DNA of 64,000 nt, taken from the IMG/VR virus record IMGVR_UViG_3300046808_000337, positions 1-64,000 of that record, one strand, 5' to 3'. The notes under the pieces are model-generated. The model saw only the letters and a list, made by a program, of their open reading frames with translations. It had not been told where the DNA came from and ran no database searches. Shown here piece by piece: positions 29,150 through 63,856 of the stretch. A program made the position numbers and the translations under genes. Position 1 is the stretch's first letter. Every line of letters begins with the position of its first letter. The DNA comes from a virus.

Positions 29150-29782
29150 ATGGGATTAAATCAAGGTGGTTCATCAAACCGTACTTACCTCAGTATTTCT
29201 AATGGTAAGATTGCCAAGCGAGTTCCGGAAGGCACAGCTGGCTCAATTAAGTGTAACAGCAAGGACGGCACCAAGGTGTGGTATGAGCAGCGATTTGCTT
29301 CGCTATCTGGCTACATCGTAGACGTGTTCAAGCGCGTATCTGAACAAGGGTATGGGGATCAGCTCTGCGTTGTGTTGAGTGACAACGGCGAGGAGTACCA
29401 AATTCAAATGCCGTGGTCATCACGCTACTCTTCAGGTTTCTTTTTGTCAATGCCTAACATCGACGCCGGTAAGGAGATTACTCTTACACCGTGGTCTAAG
29501 GAAATTGACGGCAAGACTCGTACAATGCTATACCTCCGTCACGGACAGGAGGACATCAAGTGGGGATGGACCAAGGACAACCCCGGTAATATGCCTGAGA
29601 TGAAGCAGATCAAGGTAAAGGGTCAGGTTGTATGGGACGACTCAGAGCGCCAGGAGTTCTTTGAGAAGCACCTCAACGACATCTTCCTTCCGCAAGTTAA
29701 GGCCGTGAGCTCTGTAAAGAAACTAGACTCATACGCGGCGCCGGCTGTAGAAGATCCGGACGACGACGGATTGCCATTCTAA
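29150..29782 (+). CDS. ssb: Single-stranded DNA-binding protein, 210 aa
   Basis: The C-terminus ends DPDDDGLPF, an acidic tail with terminal PF, the hallmark of SSB proteins that recruit partner enzymes. The N-terminal part has beta-strand patterns of an OB fold (SLSGYIVDVFKRV, LSDNGEEYQIQMPW). Bacterial SSBs are usually 150-180 residues; this one is somewhat longer. The gene follows the primase-helicase, which is consistent with replication, and has its own promoter. Confidence 0.8.
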   Translation: MGLNQGGSSNRTYLSISNGKIAKRVPEGTAGSIKCNSKDGTKVWYEQRFASLSGYIVDVFKRVSEQGYGDQLCVVLSDNGEEYQIQMPWSSRYSSGFFLSMPNIDAGKEITLTPWSKEIDGKTRTMLYLRHGQEDIKWGWTKDNPGNMPEMKQIKVKGQVVWDDSERQEFFEKHLNDIFLPQVKAVSSVKKLDSYAAPAVEDPDDDGLPF

Positions 29783-34055: not shown

Positions 34056-34125
34056 GGAGTGATAGCATAGTGGTATGCGTTGGGGTGAAATCCCAAAGAG
34101 TTAGGTTCGACTCCTGGTCTCTCCA
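34056..34125 (+). tRNA. tRNA-Phe (anticodon GAA)
   Basis: The acceptor stem GGAGTGA / TCTCTCC has one T-T mismatch at position 5. The D arm GCAT / ATGC is followed by the anticodon stem TTGGG / CCCAA with loop GTGAAAT (anticodon GAA), and the T arm has loop TTCGACT. No CCA is encoded. It lies between two class II tRNA-like genes. Phage tRNAs usually compensate codon use or replace host tRNAs destroyed by defence. Confidence 0.8.
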
Positions 34126-34131
34126 CAACAT

Positions 34132-34223
34132 AGTCAGGTGGCGGAATGGTAGACGCGGTGAATGGCAATGTACACACCATGGGTGAGAAACCCTGCTTAC
34201 AGGTTCGAGTCCTGTCCTGACTA
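34132..34223 (+). tRNA. Class II tRNA-like gene (Leu-like D arm, unusual anticodon arm)
   Basis: The acceptor stem AGTCAGG / CCTGACT and T stem ACAGG / CCTGT are perfect. The D arm GCGGAATGGTAGACGC is Leu-like, and the long variable arm GGGT-GAGA-ACCC makes it class II. The region between D arm and variable arm is about 24 nt, too long for the standard 17-nt arm plus spacer. I cannot fold it canonically; options are GGTG / CACC with a 14-nt loop, or TGGCA-ATGTACA-CACCA. Isotype is therefore unsure. No CCA is encoded. Confidence 0.5.
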
Positions 34224-34231
34224 CAAAACAA

Positions 34232-51311: not shown

Positions 51312-51319
51312 CAAATATA
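51312..51319 (-). promoter_or_regulatory. -7 element of a minus-strand promoter before the 368-residue gene
   Basis: On the minus strand TATATTTG is a perfect -7 element, 16 bases upstream of the ATG at 51295. The -33 region lacks a clear TTG, so the promoter is partial. Confidence 0.5.
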
Positions 51320-54015: not shown

Positions 54016-57000
54016 TTATATTTTAGTTACAAGCAATTGAAGGTTTGCCCAAGAGAATACCGCAGCCCCTGACTCTACGTTAAATCCAAGGATGTCGTTA
54101 GCGGCAAGAGTAACTGATGTCCACCCAGAAGGTGATGCACTTGTTATTTGCTGTGTGGCGCTCGTTAGGAATGGCTTGGTCCCGCCTCCAACCAATGAGT
54201 TAGCTACCGTTGGGATAGCATTGTTTGCCCTCCATATATCAAACGTCACGGTTGCTCCCAAACCAGAATTACCTGTCAAGATCGACCATGTGTTAATTGT
54301 ACAAGCGTATGGGATTCTTATGTACCCCTTCTGGCCGGCTGTAATTACACCTCCCGATCCGTCAACCGTAATACCTATGCTGAACGTACCCGATAAGCTT
54401 GGAACGCTGCCCGTTTTCCATTGGCTATCAGCCGAATCAAAGTATATCGTATCATTATCGTTAGGCGACTGCGCCTGTACGTCATGAAGCTCATCTAACT
54501 CGTATCCGTTCTGGCATCGAACGTAGATCTGACCATTACCCGCGTTGCTCTTCTCTACTATACCCACGTACACACGGTGTGTTGGTGCATAAGTTGGAGT
54601 TGATGTATAACCTCCGGGTGTGGTTCCGCTCAAGTACAGGGTAGCACCTGCCGCAAACGCCGCCGTGTTGATTCCCTCTATTACACCTTGAATGATGATG
54701 TAACCCTCGCCACCCGCTGCGATTGATGAGTCGTAAACCATACCAATCGTCTTTGCCGAAGTGTCGTCTGCATTAGCAAGAGCGAGCTTTACGCTCATCC
54801 TGTCTCCGGAAGCACCAAACGCATATACTACCTGACCCTTGGTTATTGGGGCAGCCTCTGAGTTGTGTACGTATGCAAGTAGTTGGTTGGTCACCAATCC
54901 GATTGCTTGGAAGTTTGTTCCGTCATACACGACCATGATTTCTTGGCCTGCCTTGATATCCCCTGCCGCAATCTTTACATTGGTGTTCTTGAATATGTTG
55001 ATTGGCGCAAGAGTATTTATCTGTAATGTAGACTCTCCCTCGTTGGTGCTATCAAAATTAATCATGAAGGCTTCGCCAGCCGTGTATGCGGTAACACCAG
55101 ATATTGTCGCTTCATATACGCCGTCTGTCACCTGAATAGCGTTTCCCGACTTTAAACCGCCGCCTCCGCCAGTTGGGGTAAACTCAACCACATCACCACT
55201 AGAGTTTACACCTAGCGCCCATACAGGGCTTGCATCAGGGAATTGAGCGGGGGTTTGGCCGTATTCATTTAACTTCAACTGACCAAGTGTGTCAATCTCA
55301 AGTTTGTTAACAGGAATAGGGCTTCCTGATTCCTTAATGGAAACAAAGAAGTCAGCAGTTTCAGCATTGCCAGCAGCCGTTACTGATGTAGAAACAAATC
55401 CTATGTTACCTGCATCATAGCTTGTTGCGTTGTCATTGCTTAATGTATACAGAGTCTTGGCCCCATGTCCTATAAGTCCCCCTCCAATCCTTGTAGAAAA
55501 AACGTGGAGTGGCGTTCTTATCAAGTCTGCCACATCTGAGTTGGAACTTATTACTCCAGCCATTACTCCGTAAGATCTGCTGCCAATGGTCTGGATGTGA
55601 TTATTAGTTGTTCCTAAAACGCCTATGCCTTTAGTGTTTCCTTGTCCAAAAATACCTGCTGAATTGTATGCCGCACCCGCATTTAAGCCTCCCCTAACGG
55701 CATAGGAAGCTCCAAGAGTAGCAACCAAGCTATTATTAGTCACGCTAAGCACACTAATTCCAGTTGGTGGTGTGCCAACTATTTGCAGGTTAAAGTCATC
55801 AAAGTTAAGATACCTATCCTGCGTAAACATATTGCCGACAGTACCTGCATCTCCCGATGATAAGTACCCTAACTGAAATGTTTCGTTTGTAAGGGAGGTA
55901 TTCTTGTATATGCCTTCGTTTGCGTCGTAGGTTCCGCCGCCACCGCCAAGAGGAACTTCCATTATTGACCCAGAAGCATTAACACCCAATCCGTATACCG
56001 CTGGACTAGCTGGATTTGTAAGCCAGGTTCCTATACCGTAAGTGTTAAATATCACTTGACCGTCCCCCTCAAATTGGGCAACCCTTCTGATGTTTGGGTC
56101 ATTAGAAGGAAGTGTATACCCCTCTATGACAAAAGCAGTTCCATATTCTATAGCCAGTATGTTTTCCGGGCTTGCTATGTAGCCTATGTTACCTGCTTGC
56201 TTGTATCCAATACCCGTATTTGGGTCTGGTATTGCAAAAGATACCCTGGCAGACTTATCAGACGCATTTCCGGATGTTGTTGCGCTTCTCCATAGTTCTA
56301 AAACATTGTTTTGAGTATCGCTTTCTTGTAAGAAGTAAGACGCAAACTTCTGAGATACCTCCATACCGCTTACTGGAGCGTTTATTCTCAATCCAGATCC
56401 GGTTGTCGAGTCAAGATTTAATACAAATCCATCTCCAACTGTACCTGAAACATTGAAATTAACCATCCCGCCTGGATATACGGGGTCAACACCCTCCATA
56501 TTAAACGTAAACGTATCTAAGTCTACGAATCTGTTTTCTTGAAACGCTATACTAGCTTGCAGTCCAGATGGCGCACCAAGCATGAACGTGTCATTGGTAA
56601 GTGTAGTATCCTTATATACGCCTTGATTGGAGTCGTAGGTTCCGCCTCCACCATCTGCACTAAGTGTGTCGCCAGTCAAGGTCAACCCAGACCCAATAAC
56701 GATCTGCTCGAAAACCCCTGTGCCTGAGCTATAACGTCCCACGAGGAATCCGCTGTCCATTATAGATGTAACAGTCCCTGTGGTTTCAATCGGATTCGGA
56801 GACGTGGTCAAGAGTCCTGTTGCGGTTACTGAGGTAACAGTTCCTCCGCCCTCAGATAACTTCTTAAAGACGTTACCGCTCGTATCAACGGCAAGCACGT
56901 ATTCGAGGTCGTTATTGATATTGCTTGTGCTGTTGCTGAACGCAGATGTAGCGTATTCATTCAACACAAGCTGACCAAATCCCTGCAACTCTAGCTTGTT

Positions 57001-58701
57001 TGAAAGCGTTCCGTTATCAACGAGTTGAACCTCAAACCTAGTCTCCTCATTACCATCAACAAAACTTACCACCTCGGTAGACAGGCGAGAGCCTATGAAG
57101 TTTGAGCTGGCTACTACCGCGTTGTTGTTTCTGAACTGGTAGTCTATCGTCATCATGGCAAGCGATGGATCACCCGTGTAACGGAGGCGCAAAAGCGTGT
57201 CGTCCGCAGTCGGGAGGTTGCCCTCCATGTTTAACTCAAGTAACGGCTGGAGAAGGTCGACATCGCCGACGATTTCTACGGACGGATTAGGTCTTGAGCC
57301 TGATCCATAGTCCTGGAAGGTGGCTACACCGCCATTTCCAAGATTAGCCACACCAAATGGGAAGCGAGTGTCTTGGTCTGCGCTGCCTCTTACAGATAGT
57401 TGCCACTCGTTTACCGGACCGGGGCTTGCCCCCTCCGTAGTTTCTATTAAGGTATCTTCGATAAGCTGTCCGCCCAAGTGGAACACCAAAGGATCGGCAG
57501 GAGATTCTTTTGTATGAAGACCGTTTTCTACTGTGTACACCGGGAGCGTAGCGAGTTCACCAAGTCCATTGATGTACTCTAAGGCTGTACCCGCGCCTGT
57601 TACCAAAATATCACCCGAAGTAGTAATGGGAGAATTAGTCACGGTAAATGCACTAGGCATATCAAGGCCAACGGATGTAACCGTACCTGTGCCTGCTAGG
57701 GTATATTCGACGTGACCCGAAGCGTCAAGGGCGAGAACCATTCCCGGTGTTGCGGTTGCGTATCCGGGGGTTATGATATCTACAAATGCATTTCCCGAAA
57801 TGGTTACAGCCCCCGGATCTATTTGCACAAATCCAATTGAGCCGGCACCATCATCTGCGGTGTAAACCTGGTAAGCGATTGTGTCTATCGTGTATCGGTT
57901 TACATTAGTCCACCCAAAATTAAATCCTCCACCGTCAACCGCGTTATTCTGCGTAAGCAAAGAACTAATGTTCAACGTGTCCTGCCAGTCTTGAACCAGC
58001 GATCCGCCAACGCTTGTAACGTCTACGCAAAGAGATGTACCAGCAGGGAATCCGGCAGGGCCGGTGAGAAGGGTAGAATCAAATTGAGCATACGTTCCTC
58101 CATCGCTATAGTTAGATAACTGATATACGCCGTAAACAGTCGGGTCAGTCTTGCTGAAAATAAAAACCCATGAACCATCTTGGACTATAGGCCAAAAGCC
58201 TGTGAAGTCTTGGTTGTTTGCTGTGAAATAATTAAAGCGAACAGCTGACCCGCCGTCTACAAATATACCGGGGTTCTCAGCACCAGTATCACCAGCCGTA
58301 TACTGAATGGAACATTCCGGCTCCGTATTCCCGCACTCGCAGCATCCCTTGAAGATAGCGGTTACAAGAAGTCGATATATTTCAACTGTCTTGGCTTGTA
58401 CTACATCGGAAGAGTCTTGGAATGTAAGTGGGGTAAATGTGTTACCACCAACGTCAGTTATCGCGTAAATTGTAAATGTAAACGAGTCCCCGGATACCTG
58501 TGAAATTGTAATGCTATCGTACCGATACGAAATGTAAGTCGGCGTCTGTGGCATGATTTGACTCATGCCTCGAACGTACTGATACGGGGCAACAGTCCCA
58601 TTTAGAAAGGACACTGTGTCGTTTCCCTCTACTTGTATTCGGGTAATTATGGGATTGTTGATATCAATCCGTTGCCTGTTCGATGTCGGTATTGTAGCCA
58701 T
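54016..58701 (-). CDS. Large tail fibre / receptor-binding protein, 1561 aa
   Basis: The protein is beta-rich with multiple repeat segments: GGGTYDSNQGVYKDTTLTND and GGGTYDANEGIYKNTSLTNE, plus repeated LGVNxSGxV motifs. Cysteines occur near residue 117 (GCCECGNTEPEC). The C-terminal part (about residues 1270-1560) has a different, globular look. Repeats and length fit a trimeric fibre that recognises the host surface. The motif is shared with the 789-residue fibre at 13017-15386. Confidence 0.75.
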   Translation of the reverse strand: MATIPTSNRQRIDINNPIITRIQVEGNDTVSFLNGTVAPYQYVRGMSQIMPQTPTYISYRYDSITISQVSGDSFTFTIYAITDVGGNTFTPLTFQDSSDVVQAKTVEIYRLLVTAIFKGCCECGNTEPECSIQYTAGDTGAENPGIFVDGGSAVRFNYFTANNQDFTGFWPIVQDGSWVFIFSKTDPTVYGVYQLSNYSDGGTYAQFDSTLLTGPAGFPAGTSLCVDVTSVGGSLVQDWQDTLNISSLLTQNNAVDGGGFNFGWTNVNRYTIDTIAYQVYTADDGAGSIGFVQIDPGAVTISGNAFVDIITPGYATATPGMVLALDASGHVEYTLAGTGTVTSVGLDMPSAFTVTNSPITTSGDILVTGAGTALEYINGLGELATLPVYTVENGLHTKESPADPLVFHLGGQLIEDTLIETTEGASPGPVNEWQLSVRGSADQDTRFPFGVANLGNGGVATFQDYGSGSRPNPSVEIVGDVDLLQPLLELNMEGNLPTADDTLLRLRYTGDPSLAMMTIDYQFRNNNAVVASSNFIGSRLSTEVVSFVDGNEETRFEVQLVDNGTLSNKLELQGFGQLVLNEYATSAFSNSTSNINNDLEYVLAVDTSGNVFKKLSEGGGTVTSVTATGLLTTSPNPIETTGTVTSIMDSGFLVGRYSSGTGVFEQIVIGSGLTLTGDTLSADGGGGTYDSNQGVYKDTTLTNDTFMLGAPSGLQASIAFQENRFVDLDTFTFNMEGVDPVYPGGMVNFNVSGTVGDGFVLNLDSTTGSGLRINAPVSGMEVSQKFASYFLQESDTQNNVLELWRSATTSGNASDKSARVSFAIPDPNTGIGYKQAGNIGYIASPENILAIEYGTAFVIEGYTLPSNDPNIRRVAQFEGDGQVIFNTYGIGTWLTNPASPAVYGLGVNASGSIMEVPLGGGGGTYDANEGIYKNTSLTNETFQLGYLSSGDAGTVGNMFTQDRYLNFDDFNLQIVGTPPTGISVLSVTNNSLVATLGASYAVRGGLNAGAAYNSAGIFGQGNTKGIGVLGTTNNHIQTIGSRSYGVMAGVISSNSDVADLIRTPLHVFSTRIGGGLIGHGAKTLYTLSNDNATSYDAGNIGFVSTSVTAAGNAETADFFVSIKESGSPIPVNKLEIDTLGQLKLNEYGQTPAQFPDASPVWALGVNSSGDVVEFTPTGGGGGLKSGNAIQVTDGVYEATISGVTAYTAGEAFMINFDSTNEGESTLQINTLAPINIFKNTNVKIAAGDIKAGQEIMVVYDGTNFQAIGLVTNQLLAYVHNSEAAPITKGQVVYAFGASGDRMSVKLALANADDTSAKTIGMVYDSSIAAGGEGYIIIQGVIEGINTAAFAAGATLYLSGTTPGGYTSTPTYAPTHRVYVGIVEKSNAGNGQIYVRCQNGYELDELHDVQAQSPNDNDTIYFDSADSQWKTGSVPSLSGTFSIGITVDGSGGVITAGQKGYIRIPYACTINTWSILTGNSGLGATVTFDIWRANNAIPTVANSLVGGGTKPFLTSATQQITSASPSGWTSVTLAANDILGFNVESGAAVFSWANLQLLVTKI

Positions 58702-59348
58702 TATTTACATTCTTCTTCAGTCGCGAAGGTACAAAATTCGTCGAGACTTTTGTACATTTTCGCATACTTAGAAGAAGAGAACTTGTCGCGCCACTCCATC
58801 TTGACCCGCGCCCACTCTGGCCCGGTTCGTACAGGCTGTGCTCGCCTTTCTTCCTTGGCGCCCGAAAAGATGAAATTAATCACAGACTTCTTGCTGGGAC
58901 GACCGCCATTCTTGCGCTTACTCTCTATCAAAATCTTTACCTCGTCTAACTTTTCGTGGTTCGCTTCCTCCAGGAGTTCCACCATCTGACGAAGAGATAT
59001 ACAAGAATCGAGCTTACCACGGGTTATCGTAACCTTTTCACGAACGACTGGATCGCTGTCCAAAAACTTGATATCAAACCCAAGTTCGCGCATAGCGAAG
59101 GTAAGGGACAGAATATCCGCCTTGATTTGCGCCGTTCCCCTATTGGGAACTGAGGGGTAGATTGCGGAATGCCAGCTAGTCCTTTTGTCATCGTCTATAA
59201 ATATTGATGTGTTGCTTATAGCATAGTCCCCAACGCCCCTTTCAACCAATACGGAGGCATCAGGAAACTTTTCCTTCAACTCACTAATTAGTACTCTATA
59301 TTCACCTAATTCATGCGGCGTTGGATCCGCAAGTTTCAATTCAATCAT
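58701..59348 (-). CDS. Unknown protein with a basic segment, 215 aa
   Basis: I start at 59348 (MIELKLADPTPHELGEYRVL). It has an alpha/beta N-terminal part and a basic segment (SKRKNGGRPSKKSVINFI), which could bind nucleic acid. Its stop overlaps the start of the fibre gene (TAATG). It might be a regulator of fibre expression or a structural adaptor, but no family is recognised. Confidence 0.55.
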   Translation of the reverse strand: MIELKLADPTPHELGEYRVLISELKEKFPDASVLVERGVGDYAISNTSIFIDDDKRTSWHSAIYPSVPNRGTAQIKADILSLTFAMRELGFDIKFLDSDPVVREKVTITRGKLDSCISLRQMVELLEEANHEKLDEVKILIESKRKNGGRPSKKSVINFIFSGAKEERRAQPVRTGPEWARVKMEWRDKFSSSKYAKMYKSLDEFCTFATEEECK

Positions 59349-59365: not shown

Positions 59366-59401
59366 CAAATATAAAAGAAATCCCCGGGCCGTTGCCCAGG
59401 G
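59366..59401 (-). promoter_or_regulatory. Terminator followed by -7 element on the minus strand
   Basis: On the minus strand the stem CCCTGGGC / GCCCGGGG (59401-59394 and 59389-59382, one G-U pair) with loop AACG is followed by ATTTCTTTTAT, a terminator for upstream minus genes. Immediately downstream is TATATTTG (59373-59366), a -7 element that leads to the 215-residue gene. No good TTG is seen at -33. Confidence 0.5.
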
Positions 59402-59484
59402 AAAACCACATAAACACTAAACACTATATTACTTACCAAAACCAGGGCGAATATATACGCAAGGTTCGTTTGTGCAAAATAATT

Positions 59485-59514
59485 TTGCATTAAATAATAA
59501 ATGTCATATATTTG
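59485..59514 (+). promoter_or_regulatory. Plus-strand promoter of an orphan small RNA
   Basis: TTG (59485-59487), a 19-base spacer and TATATTTG (59507-59514) give an excellent promoter match, with TTTTGC at 59483-59488. It transcribes to the right, opposite to all nearby protein genes. Confidence 0.8.
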
Positions 59515-59519
59515 CCCCG

Positions 59520-59594
59520 CAAGTTCGCGCACACTAAGTGCAGTCGGGAGACGAGAACTTTGAGGGCGGGCTGATCACCGCCCTCTGTGTTTTC
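59520..59594 (+). ncRNA. Orphan small RNA with terminator (plus strand)
   Basis: The RNA forms stem 1 AAGTTC / GAACTT (59521-59526, 59555-59560), enclosing hairpin GCAC-ACTAA-GTGC (59529-59541) and hairpin GTC-GGGA-GAC with a GNRA tetraloop (59543-59552). The terminator GAGGGCGG / CCGCCCTC (59562-59569, 59578-59585) is followed by TGTGTTTT. There is no ORF. A perfect promoter lies directly upstream. Length is about 75 nt. It could act in trans, in cis as an antisense RNA, or as a decoy. Confidence 0.75.
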
Positions 59595-59623
59595 AGAAGG
59601 TATACAACTACAGTAGGGAGAAA

Positions 59624-59839
59624 TTACTTATGGGAGCGCTTCGCCTTGGCCTTCTTATAGTGACCGTAAAGGACAACGACAGATACTGTACAAGCCAATA
59701 GTAGAGACGAAATTCGGAAGGCCCATTCGGCCTGTTCCTGCCACGATAGTACGGCTGCAAATGTTGTTAACAAAACTGATCCCGCAGCGTCTATATATCC
59801 TTGTCCTGTCATCTCCTGTTGATTTATATCATGGTGCAT
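59624..59839 (-). CDS. Holin-like two-transmembrane protein, 71 aa
   Basis: Two hydrophobic segments (SVLLTTFAAVLSWQ and AFRISSLLLACTVSVVVLYG) are followed by a basic C-terminus (HYKKAKAKRSHK), the usual shape of a small class II-type holin. I start at the ATG at 59839; a GTG at 59848 would overlap the -7 element. It sits far from the endolysin, so lysis genes are dispersed. Confidence 0.6.
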   Translation of the reverse strand: MHHDINQQEMTGQGYIDAAGSVLLTTFAAVLSWQEQAEWAFRISSLLLACTVSVVVLYGHYKKAKAKRSHK

Positions 59840-59847
59840 TGCGCTCA

Positions 59848-59855
59848 CAAATATA
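59848..59855 (-). promoter_or_regulatory. -7 element before the holin-like gene
   Basis: The minus strand reads TATATTTG nine bases upstream of the ATG at 59839, a perfect -7 element with very short leader. No TTG at -33 is clear. Confidence 0.45.
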
Positions 59856-63364: not shown

Positions 63365-63856
63365 TTAGAATAGTTTTTTCTCCAACAGGAGCATGTTGAA
63401 CTTGTCCTTCGCGTCTACGTCCTCGAGCATGTTGAGCTTGTCGCTATACTCAGCAACCGACTGCTTCTGTAGCATGCGGAACTGCTGTAGGAAGTCGAAC
63501 ACGCACAGGTCCTTCTTGAACACCTCCATTGACGTGCCTTCGTAGTCCTCGTACAGTGCATACTCGATAGAGTAAGCGTTCTCGATGACGTCGATGAGTC
63601 CGCCGAAGGTGATCTGCGGGCGCTCCACTGTTGGAAGCTCCGGATCCACGTTCCAGTCCACGAGGTAGTCCTCGATCTTCTTTGCGTGCGACAGTTCGTC
63701 TTCGGACTCCTTGGCGAAGAACTCAGCCGCCTTGAAGTAGCCCACGCCCTTACACCAGTTGCTGGCTGCGCGGTAAAAATAAAACGCGTTGTACTCGTCC
63801 TTGAGGCGAGGCAACAGCAGGTCTACGACCTCTTTGCTTAACTTATTTGGTGTCAT
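63365..63856 (-). CDS. Ferritin-like four-helix protein, 163 aa
   Basis: E21 and Y22 in KDEYNAFYFYRA, then E50/E54 and H57 in AKESEDELSHAKK, follow the four-helix ferritin/Dps-type pattern with a diiron site. A third helix carries ENAYSIEYALYEDYE. In phages such proteins are rare and may store iron, protect DNA, or form part of the virion. The stop of the next upstream gene overlaps its start (ATGA). Confidence 0.75.
   Translation of the reverse strand: MTPNKLSKEVVDLLLPRLKDEYNAFYFYRAASNWCKGVGYFKAAEFFAKESEDELSHAKKIEDYLVDWNVDPELPTVERPQITFGGLIDVIENAYSIEYALYEDYEGTSMEVFKKDLCVFDFLQQFRMLQKQSVAEYSDKLNMLEDVDAKDKFNMLLLEKKLF

What the first reader, a model, noticed from the sequence alone, without database searches (positions are those of the whole stretch)
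59485..59594. Orphan plus-strand small RNA with three-hairpin body and its own promoter and terminator
A near-perfect promoter is followed by a compact RNA, stem 1 enclosing two small hairpins (one with a GGGA tetraloop), and a strong terminator. It lies in a gap inside a minus-strand operon. It could be a regulatory RNA that targets late mRNAs or a host mRNA. No known family is recognised.
Basis: partly seen in the sequence, partly recalled or inferred. Interest (0 to 1): 0.65.

Follow-up and report, generated by a model that had tools for sequence, protein, structure and literature searches.

The report
New small RNA gene in Bacteroidota phages
The window carries a real, roughly 75-nucleotide structured RNA gene of a phage of Bacteroidota bacteria, kept nearly letter for letter in related uncultured phages and by shape alone in distant ones; it belongs to no catalogued RNA family and probably regulates phage late genes.

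Summary
A Bacteroidota-type promoter (TTTGCA-N17-TATATTTG, 59484-59514, +) drives a predicted RNA of about 75 nt (59519-59593). It folds as stem 1 around a variable hairpin and a GGGA-tetraloop hairpin, followed by a terminator.

It is not chance. The core is an exact match in 21 viral contigs. In the aligned copies 58 of 71 RNA columns are invariant, while the 4 bases just before the RNA are free. Two distant lineages (neighbouring protein 54% and 48% identical) keep the architecture at the same place through double compensatory changes: 3 pairs in stem 1 and hairpin 2, a fourth in hairpin 1 within the main group. No pair is broken. G-U pairs specify the + strand. Two relatives lack the cassette cleanly (122 bp between AAAT repeats), so it is dispensable. 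No Rfam family matches.

Function is inferred. The best lead is base pairing with the mRNA of the divergent neighbour (58701-59348): the RNA's 5' end has a 12-nt perfect match in a synonymously constrained stretch of that gene. This is suggestive only: shuffled RNAs often do as well, and the distant lineages lack the site. A protein-binding role is almost as likely. New family of a known kind (phage sRNA).

The parts
59484..59514 (+). Promoter of the RNA: -33 TTTGCA (59484-59489), -7 TATATTTG (59507-59514), Bacteroidota sigma-ABfr type
   Evidence: -7 invariant in all aligned copies; consensus as in PMC7366714
59519..59593 (+). Predicted small RNA, about 75 nt; start inferred from where invariance begins, 5 nt after the -7 box
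   Evidence: 4 bases before it vary freely (48% identity), first 10 nt of the RNA 100% identical
59521..59560 (+). Stem 1: 59521-59526 (AAGUUC) with 59555-59560 (GAACUU), enclosing both hairpins; GGUUU/AAACC and AGUUU/AAACU in the distant lineages
59529..59541 (+). Hairpin 1 (GCAC-ACUAA-GUGC): variable loop and length, stem kept (C-G to U-A in L012; C-G to U-G in L021 and L023); absent as a hairpin in the distant lineages
59543..59552 (+). Hairpin 2 (GUC-GGGA-GAC), GNRA-type tetraloop, loop invariant in all three lineages, stem U-A to C-G in L034
59562..59593 (+). Terminator: GAGGGCGG-GCUGAUCA-CCGCCCUC, tail UGUGUUUU
   Evidence: a GC-rich hairpin with U-rich tail, different in sequence, follows in L034 and L091
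59595..59620 (+). Conserved stretch after the terminator (AGAAGGTATAC ... GGGAGA), part of the lost cassette; role unknown
59503..59624 (+). Cassette (122 bp) missing in L010 and L015, bounded by AAAT direct repeats (59499-59502, 59621-59624)
59448..59478 (-). Divergent minus-strand promoter (TTTGCA-N17-TATATTCG; TAnnTTYG kept in relatives)
59381..59402 (-). Conserved minus-strand terminator or attenuator hairpin between that promoter and the start codon of the next gene
58701..59348 (-). P0001, 215-aa protein of unknown function next to the RNA in every RNA-bearing contig; proposed target mRNA and/or partner
59081..59108 (-). Proposed pairing site in P0001 mRNA: UGCGCGAACUUG (59092-59081) with RNA nt 2-13, and UCCC (59108-59105) opposite the GGGA loop
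   Evidence: suggestive only

Best explanation
This is a genuine gene for a structured non-coding RNA of about 75 nt, made by host RNA polymerase from a housekeeping-type promoter on the strand opposite to the late genes of a Bacteroidota phage. Most likely it acts by base pairing. Its 5' end (CAAGUUCGCGCA) and its GGGA loop pair with a site inside the mRNA of the divergent neighbour P0001, which runs on into the tail-fibre gene, and damp or time the expression of that mRNA. Shown by sequence comparison: promoter, RNA structure and strand, conservation, dispensability. Inferred: transcription itself, and every step of the pairing mechanism.
For: RNA gene: conservation pattern, covariation across three lineages at the same locus. 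The motif (5-bp stem plus GGGA hairpin plus TAnnTTTG) occurs in 1.31 Mb of scanned strand only at these loci, plus two background hits without promoter. G-U pairs fit only the plus strand. Pairing: a 12-nt perfect match to P0001 mRNA, about 0.25% by chance for that one gene (my estimate from lengths). The site is kept in the group-1 phages checked: the only common variation is C/U opposite a G (G-C or G-U), with one mismatch in L014. Codons 79-92 have 0.066 synonymous difference against a gene mean of 0.32, although the amino acids there are not conserved in distant relatives. The GGGA loop faces UCCC in the best duplexes of the window and G016.
Against: Genome-wide, 23% of shuffled RNAs have at least one equally conserved 12-bp site. 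Duplex energies beat shuffles only weakly (9%, 58% and 5% of shuffles do as well in three phages). The distant lineages have no equivalent site. A local mRNA hairpin (UUCGC-UAUGC-GYGAA) could explain the synonymous constraint equally well. In the full-length fold the GGGA loop is open, but in the stem-1 fold the 5' seed lies partly in stem 1. No expression data.
Confidence: 0.38

Rival explanations
1. The RNA works as a protein ligand, scaffold or decoy: the GGGA hairpin held in stem 1 is the binding site of a phage protein (possibly P0001) or of a host RNA-binding protein, and pairing with mRNA is incidental.
For: Across lineages stem sequence and hairpin 1 change but the GGGA loop and the geometry stay, as expected of a protein-binding site. 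Every RNA-bearing contig also encodes P0001 beside the RNA. The P0001 model has an alpha-beta-beta-beta-alpha domain whose weak structural matches include HPF and double-stranded-RNA-binding domains. Group-1 sequence is far more constrained than its structure needs.
Against: Structure matches in the PDB are all below significance (best E 0.018, model pLDDT 71), and the viral library gives DNA-annealing proteins. L010 and L015 keep P0001 without the RNA.
Confidence: 0.28
2. A base-pairing small RNA whose real target is a host RNA or another phage mRNA; the P0001 match is chance.
For: Near-invariant sequence in group 1 fits a conserved target. The host-type promoter resembles those before replication-region genes at 29150 and 31192, so it may act early.
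Against: No other conserved 12-bp match lies in the sense strand of a phage gene (the two others are on the non-coding strand). The host is unknown, so host targets were not tested.
Confidence: 0.2
3. OOP-like cis element: the opposite-strand promoter-terminator unit works by antisense overlap with, or by blocking, transcription of the late operon through the gap; the RNA itself matters little.
For: Size, own promoter and terminator, and position in a gap opposite to an operon resemble lambda OOP (77 nt, PMC12197685).
Against: The RNA overlaps no coding sequence (59519-59593; the neighbouring stop codon is at 59624). Compensatory changes and the invariant GGGA loop show that RNA structure is selected. 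A separate minus-strand terminator-like hairpin (59402-59381) may already end upstream transcription.
Confidence: 0.09
4. Not an RNA gene: a conserved DNA element (recombination or protein site) or a remnant that spreads between phages.
For: Clean presence or absence between AAAT repeats.
Against: G-U pairs, covariation, and invariance that starts exactly at the predicted start and excludes the 4-nt spacer and the hairpin-1 loop; the unit is always at the same locus, once per genome.
Confidence: 0.05

Closest known systems
Lambda OOP RNA (and P22 sar RNA)
   Same: Phage small RNA of 68-77 nt with its own promoter and terminator in a gap opposite to a phage operon (PMC12197685)
   Different: OOP is antisense to cII and sar to ant; here no coding sequence is overlapped, and structure with an invariant GGGA loop is conserved
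Intergenic small RNAs of Bacteroides such as GibS
   Same: sigma-ABfr-type promoter, intrinsic terminator, structured body (PMC7366714)
   Different: Bacterial, not phage; no sequence or family match (Rfam)
c4-type phage antisense RNA
   Same: Recognition segments presented by a folded RNA and pairing with a phage mRNA (PMC12197685)
   Different: c4 pairs around the ribosome-binding site of ant and is made upstream of its target (own knowledge); here divergent promoter and a site inside the gene
phi29 packaging RNA
   Same: Phage RNA built on a small three-way junction (own knowledge)
   Different: No complementary loops for ring formation; hairpin 1 is missing in two lineages

Membership tests
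Bacteroidota small RNA gene with sigma-ABfr promoter | -33 TTTG and -7 TAnnTTTG at proper spacing, conserved | tested here: met
Bacteroidota small RNA gene with sigma-ABfr promoter | Mapped transcription start | not testable with these tools
   no RNA-seq data
Bacteroidota small RNA gene with sigma-ABfr promoter | Intrinsic terminator | tested here: met
   8-bp GC-rich stem, but interrupted U-tail; counterparts in L034 and L091
Bacteroidota small RNA gene with sigma-ABfr promoter | Non-coding | tested here: met
   only a GTG start in the window copy, lost in L012 (GUA); no shared reading frame across lineages
Any Rfam 15 family | Score above the family's gathering threshold | tested here: not met
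Lambda OOP-like cis-antisense RNA | Overlaps the coding end of the opposing gene | tested here: not met
   RNA 59519-59593; stop codon of the opposing gene at 59624
Base-pairing small RNA acting on P0001 mRNA | Conserved complementarity better than chance | tested here: inconclusive
   favour it; searches do not establish it
Base-pairing small RNA acting on P0001 mRNA | Compensatory mutations restore regulation | not testable with these tools
   needs the bench
Type III antitoxin RNA | Tandem repeats beside a toxin gene of that family | tested here: not met
   single copy, no repeat; P0001 matches no family
RNA anti-CRISPR (solo CRISPR repeat) | Similarity to host CRISPR repeats | not tested
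   host unknown; the exact 24-nt core is absent from 84,980 genomes, which does not favour it

The most novel reading that the evidence does not exclude
The RNA and P0001 form a paired regulatory unit: an RNA-binding late protein of a new family and a dedicated structured RNA that both binds it through the GGGA hairpin and pairs with its mRNA, so that the phage sets its own fibre and late-gene level by RNA.
Probability: 0.1. Interest if true: 0.75.

Novelty: new member of a known kind. Interest (0 to 1): 0.45.

Why it matters
The papers found here on phage small RNAs concern mainly temperate phages of enterobacteria, and the searches made here for Bacteroidota phages returned nothing relevant. 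This is a covariation-supported RNA family at one locus in a widespread uncultured group, with a defined structure, a natural deletion to compare with, and a testable target site. If it regulates late expression it would be a dedicated phage sRNA in a phylum where RNA regulation is little explored.

Tried and rejected
E. coli-type promoter scan: uninformative. Rfam, including weak matches: all low hits are on the minus strand and far below threshold. Relatives in annotated phage records by DNA or by P0001 protein: none; two cultured relatives of the portal (Cellulophaga phi46:3, Flavobacterium elemoE) have neither a model match nor the motif. Exact core in bacterial genomes: none. Covariance model R1 finds L034 only weakly (E about 0.09 in its own record, but at the syntenic place) and misses L091; these two rest on synteny and the structural motif. 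Small-peptide reading: rejected because the only start codon is lost in L012 and no frame is shared. Within group 1 alone covariation is thin (one double change, 51 of 500 shuffles as good); the case rests on the three lineages together. MAFFT misplaces stem 1 between lineages by one or two columns, so pairs were counted on a manual structural alignment. Other phage mRNA targets: no better conserved sense-strand site. P0001 structure: low confidence, no significant PDB match. A second scan with a deeper P0001 alignment gave no further lineages.

Full report
What the window is. The window is bases 1-64000 of a 70,037-base IMG/VR virus record. Its portal and terminase match phage families, and the portal matches those of Flavobacterium and Cellulophaga phages at about 22-23% identity, so it is probably an uncultured phage of Bacteroidota. 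Late genes run on the minus strand and replication genes on the plus strand. The finding lies in the gap between a 74-aa probable membrane protein (59624-59848, minus) and P0001 (215 aa, start codon at 59348, minus), which is followed directly by a 1561-aa fibre-like protein (54016-58701).

The observation. The promoter is TTTGCA-N17-TATATTTG. With the consensus known for Bacteroidota (-33 TTTG, -7 TAnnTTTG; PMC7366714), TTTGC-N17-19-TAnnTTYG occurs four times in the window against 0.35 expected, always between genes; two of these are the back-to-back pair here, and the other two precede replication-region genes. The RNA 59519-59593 folds with z = -2.5. In the full-length minimum-energy fold GAGAAC pairs with the U-tail instead, so stem 1 and an extended terminator compete. 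A terminator hairpin follows.

Conservation. The 24-nt core is an exact match in 21 viral contigs, all of which also encode P0001 (and, for one contig). In the alignment the -7 box is invariant, the four bases after it are free (48% identity), and the RNA from its first predicted base is 94% identical (58 of 71 columns invariant) although the least conserved flanking non-coding DNA is about 45% identical. The free positions inside the RNA are the loop and length of hairpin 1, whose stem is kept: C-G to U-A in L012, C-G to U-G in L021 and L023. The U-G cases pair on the plus strand and mismatch on the minus strand. This argues for selection on a plus-strand RNA rather than recent spread of identical DNA.

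Distant lineages. Contigs whose P0001 is 54% identical (L032, L034, L035, L037, identical to each other over the gap) carry at the same place TAGATTTG-TCGC-GGUUUAGCGCAAAUGCCGGGAGGCAAAACC followed by a GC-rich hairpin and a U-rich tail. One contig whose P0001 is 48% identical (L091) has TATTTTTG-CAAA-AGUUUAACAACACGUCGGGAGACGAAACU and again a hairpin with a U-rich tail. Stem 1 becomes GGUUU/AAACC or AGUUU/AAACU and hairpin 2 becomes GCC-GGGA-GGC in L034. Counted by hand on the structural alignment, three pairs of stem 1 and hairpin 2 show double compensatory changes, a fourth lies in hairpin 1 (within group 1), and no pair is broken. A search for the motif (5-bp stem, GGGA hairpin, preceded by TAnnTTTG) over 1.31 Mb of strand found only these loci; without the promoter there were two background hits. 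The covariance model of group 1 finds L034 as the best place in its record, weakly, and misses L091. The common core is therefore stem 1, a 5' bulge that in group 1 forms hairpin 1, and a GGGA (GNRA-type) hairpin.

Absence. L010 and L015 lack the stretch that corresponds to window bases 59503-59624, bounded by AAAT repeats, and keep the neighbouring stop codon and the divergent promoter. They share the junction, so one loss event is enough to explain them. The RNA is thus dispensable in nature, which fits a regulatory or accessory role.

Function. I looked for conserved complementarity. RNA nt 2-13 match P0001 mRNA perfectly (59092-59081). The site is kept in group 1 with only C/U variation opposite a G, apart from one mismatch in L014. 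It lies within codons 79-92, one of two stretches of P0001 with almost no synonymous change (0.066 against 0.32), where distant relatives differ in amino acids. In the window and in G016 the best predicted duplex adds the GGGA loop against UCCC at matching spacing. Against this: 23% of shuffled RNAs have some equally conserved 12-bp match in the genome, duplex energies are only marginal, the distant lineages lack the site, and a local mRNA hairpin may explain the constraint. I therefore hold pairing with P0001 mRNA as the leading mechanism at about 0.38, not as a result.

The main rival is a protein-binding RNA. What persists across lineages is geometry and the GGGA loop, and P0001 is always adjacent. 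A low-confidence model of P0001 (pLDDT 71) has an alpha-beta-beta-beta-alpha domain with weak similarity to HPF and double-stranded-RNA-binding domains, but also to DNA-annealing proteins. This was not resolved.

Verdict. A real and, as far as the tools here show, uncatalogued RNA family of a known kind (phage small RNA). I am about 0.93 sure that it is a genuine RNA gene; the mechanism is open.

Noticed in passing
59381-59478 (minus): A divergent minus-strand promoter (TAnnTTYG kept), a conserved 5' end (GGUUUUGGUA) and a conserved terminator hairpin with an AACG loop before P0001: either an attenuated leader or a second small RNA of about 65-70 nt; the 5' motif and hairpin recur in L034.
   Followed up: partly
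58729-58755: Perfect 8-bp inverted repeat GTACAAAA-N11-TTTTGTAC near the end of P0001, just upstream of the fibre gene, in the other stretch of P0001 with almost no synonymous change; chance expectation 0.00. Possible operator or RNA hairpin for the fibre gene.
   Followed up: partly
59595-59620: Conserved AGAAGGTA and a second GGGA motif after the terminator (in several relatives inside a small potential hairpin), lost together with the RNA; suggests read-through or a further element.
   Followed up: partly
59366-59373, 59848-59855, 51312-51319 (minus): TATATTTG boxes just upstream of late genes with no -33 TTTG at the usual spacing; 14 in the window against 1.7 expected. Possibly late promoters of another type.
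   Followed up: no
63365-63856 (minus): Ferritin-like protein gene among the late genes, with relatives at 37 distinct loci in viral contigs.
   Followed up: no
34056-34224 (plus): Two adjacent tRNA genes, tRNA-Phe and one of 93 nt with a predicted 4-base anticodon (gcaa).
   Followed up: no
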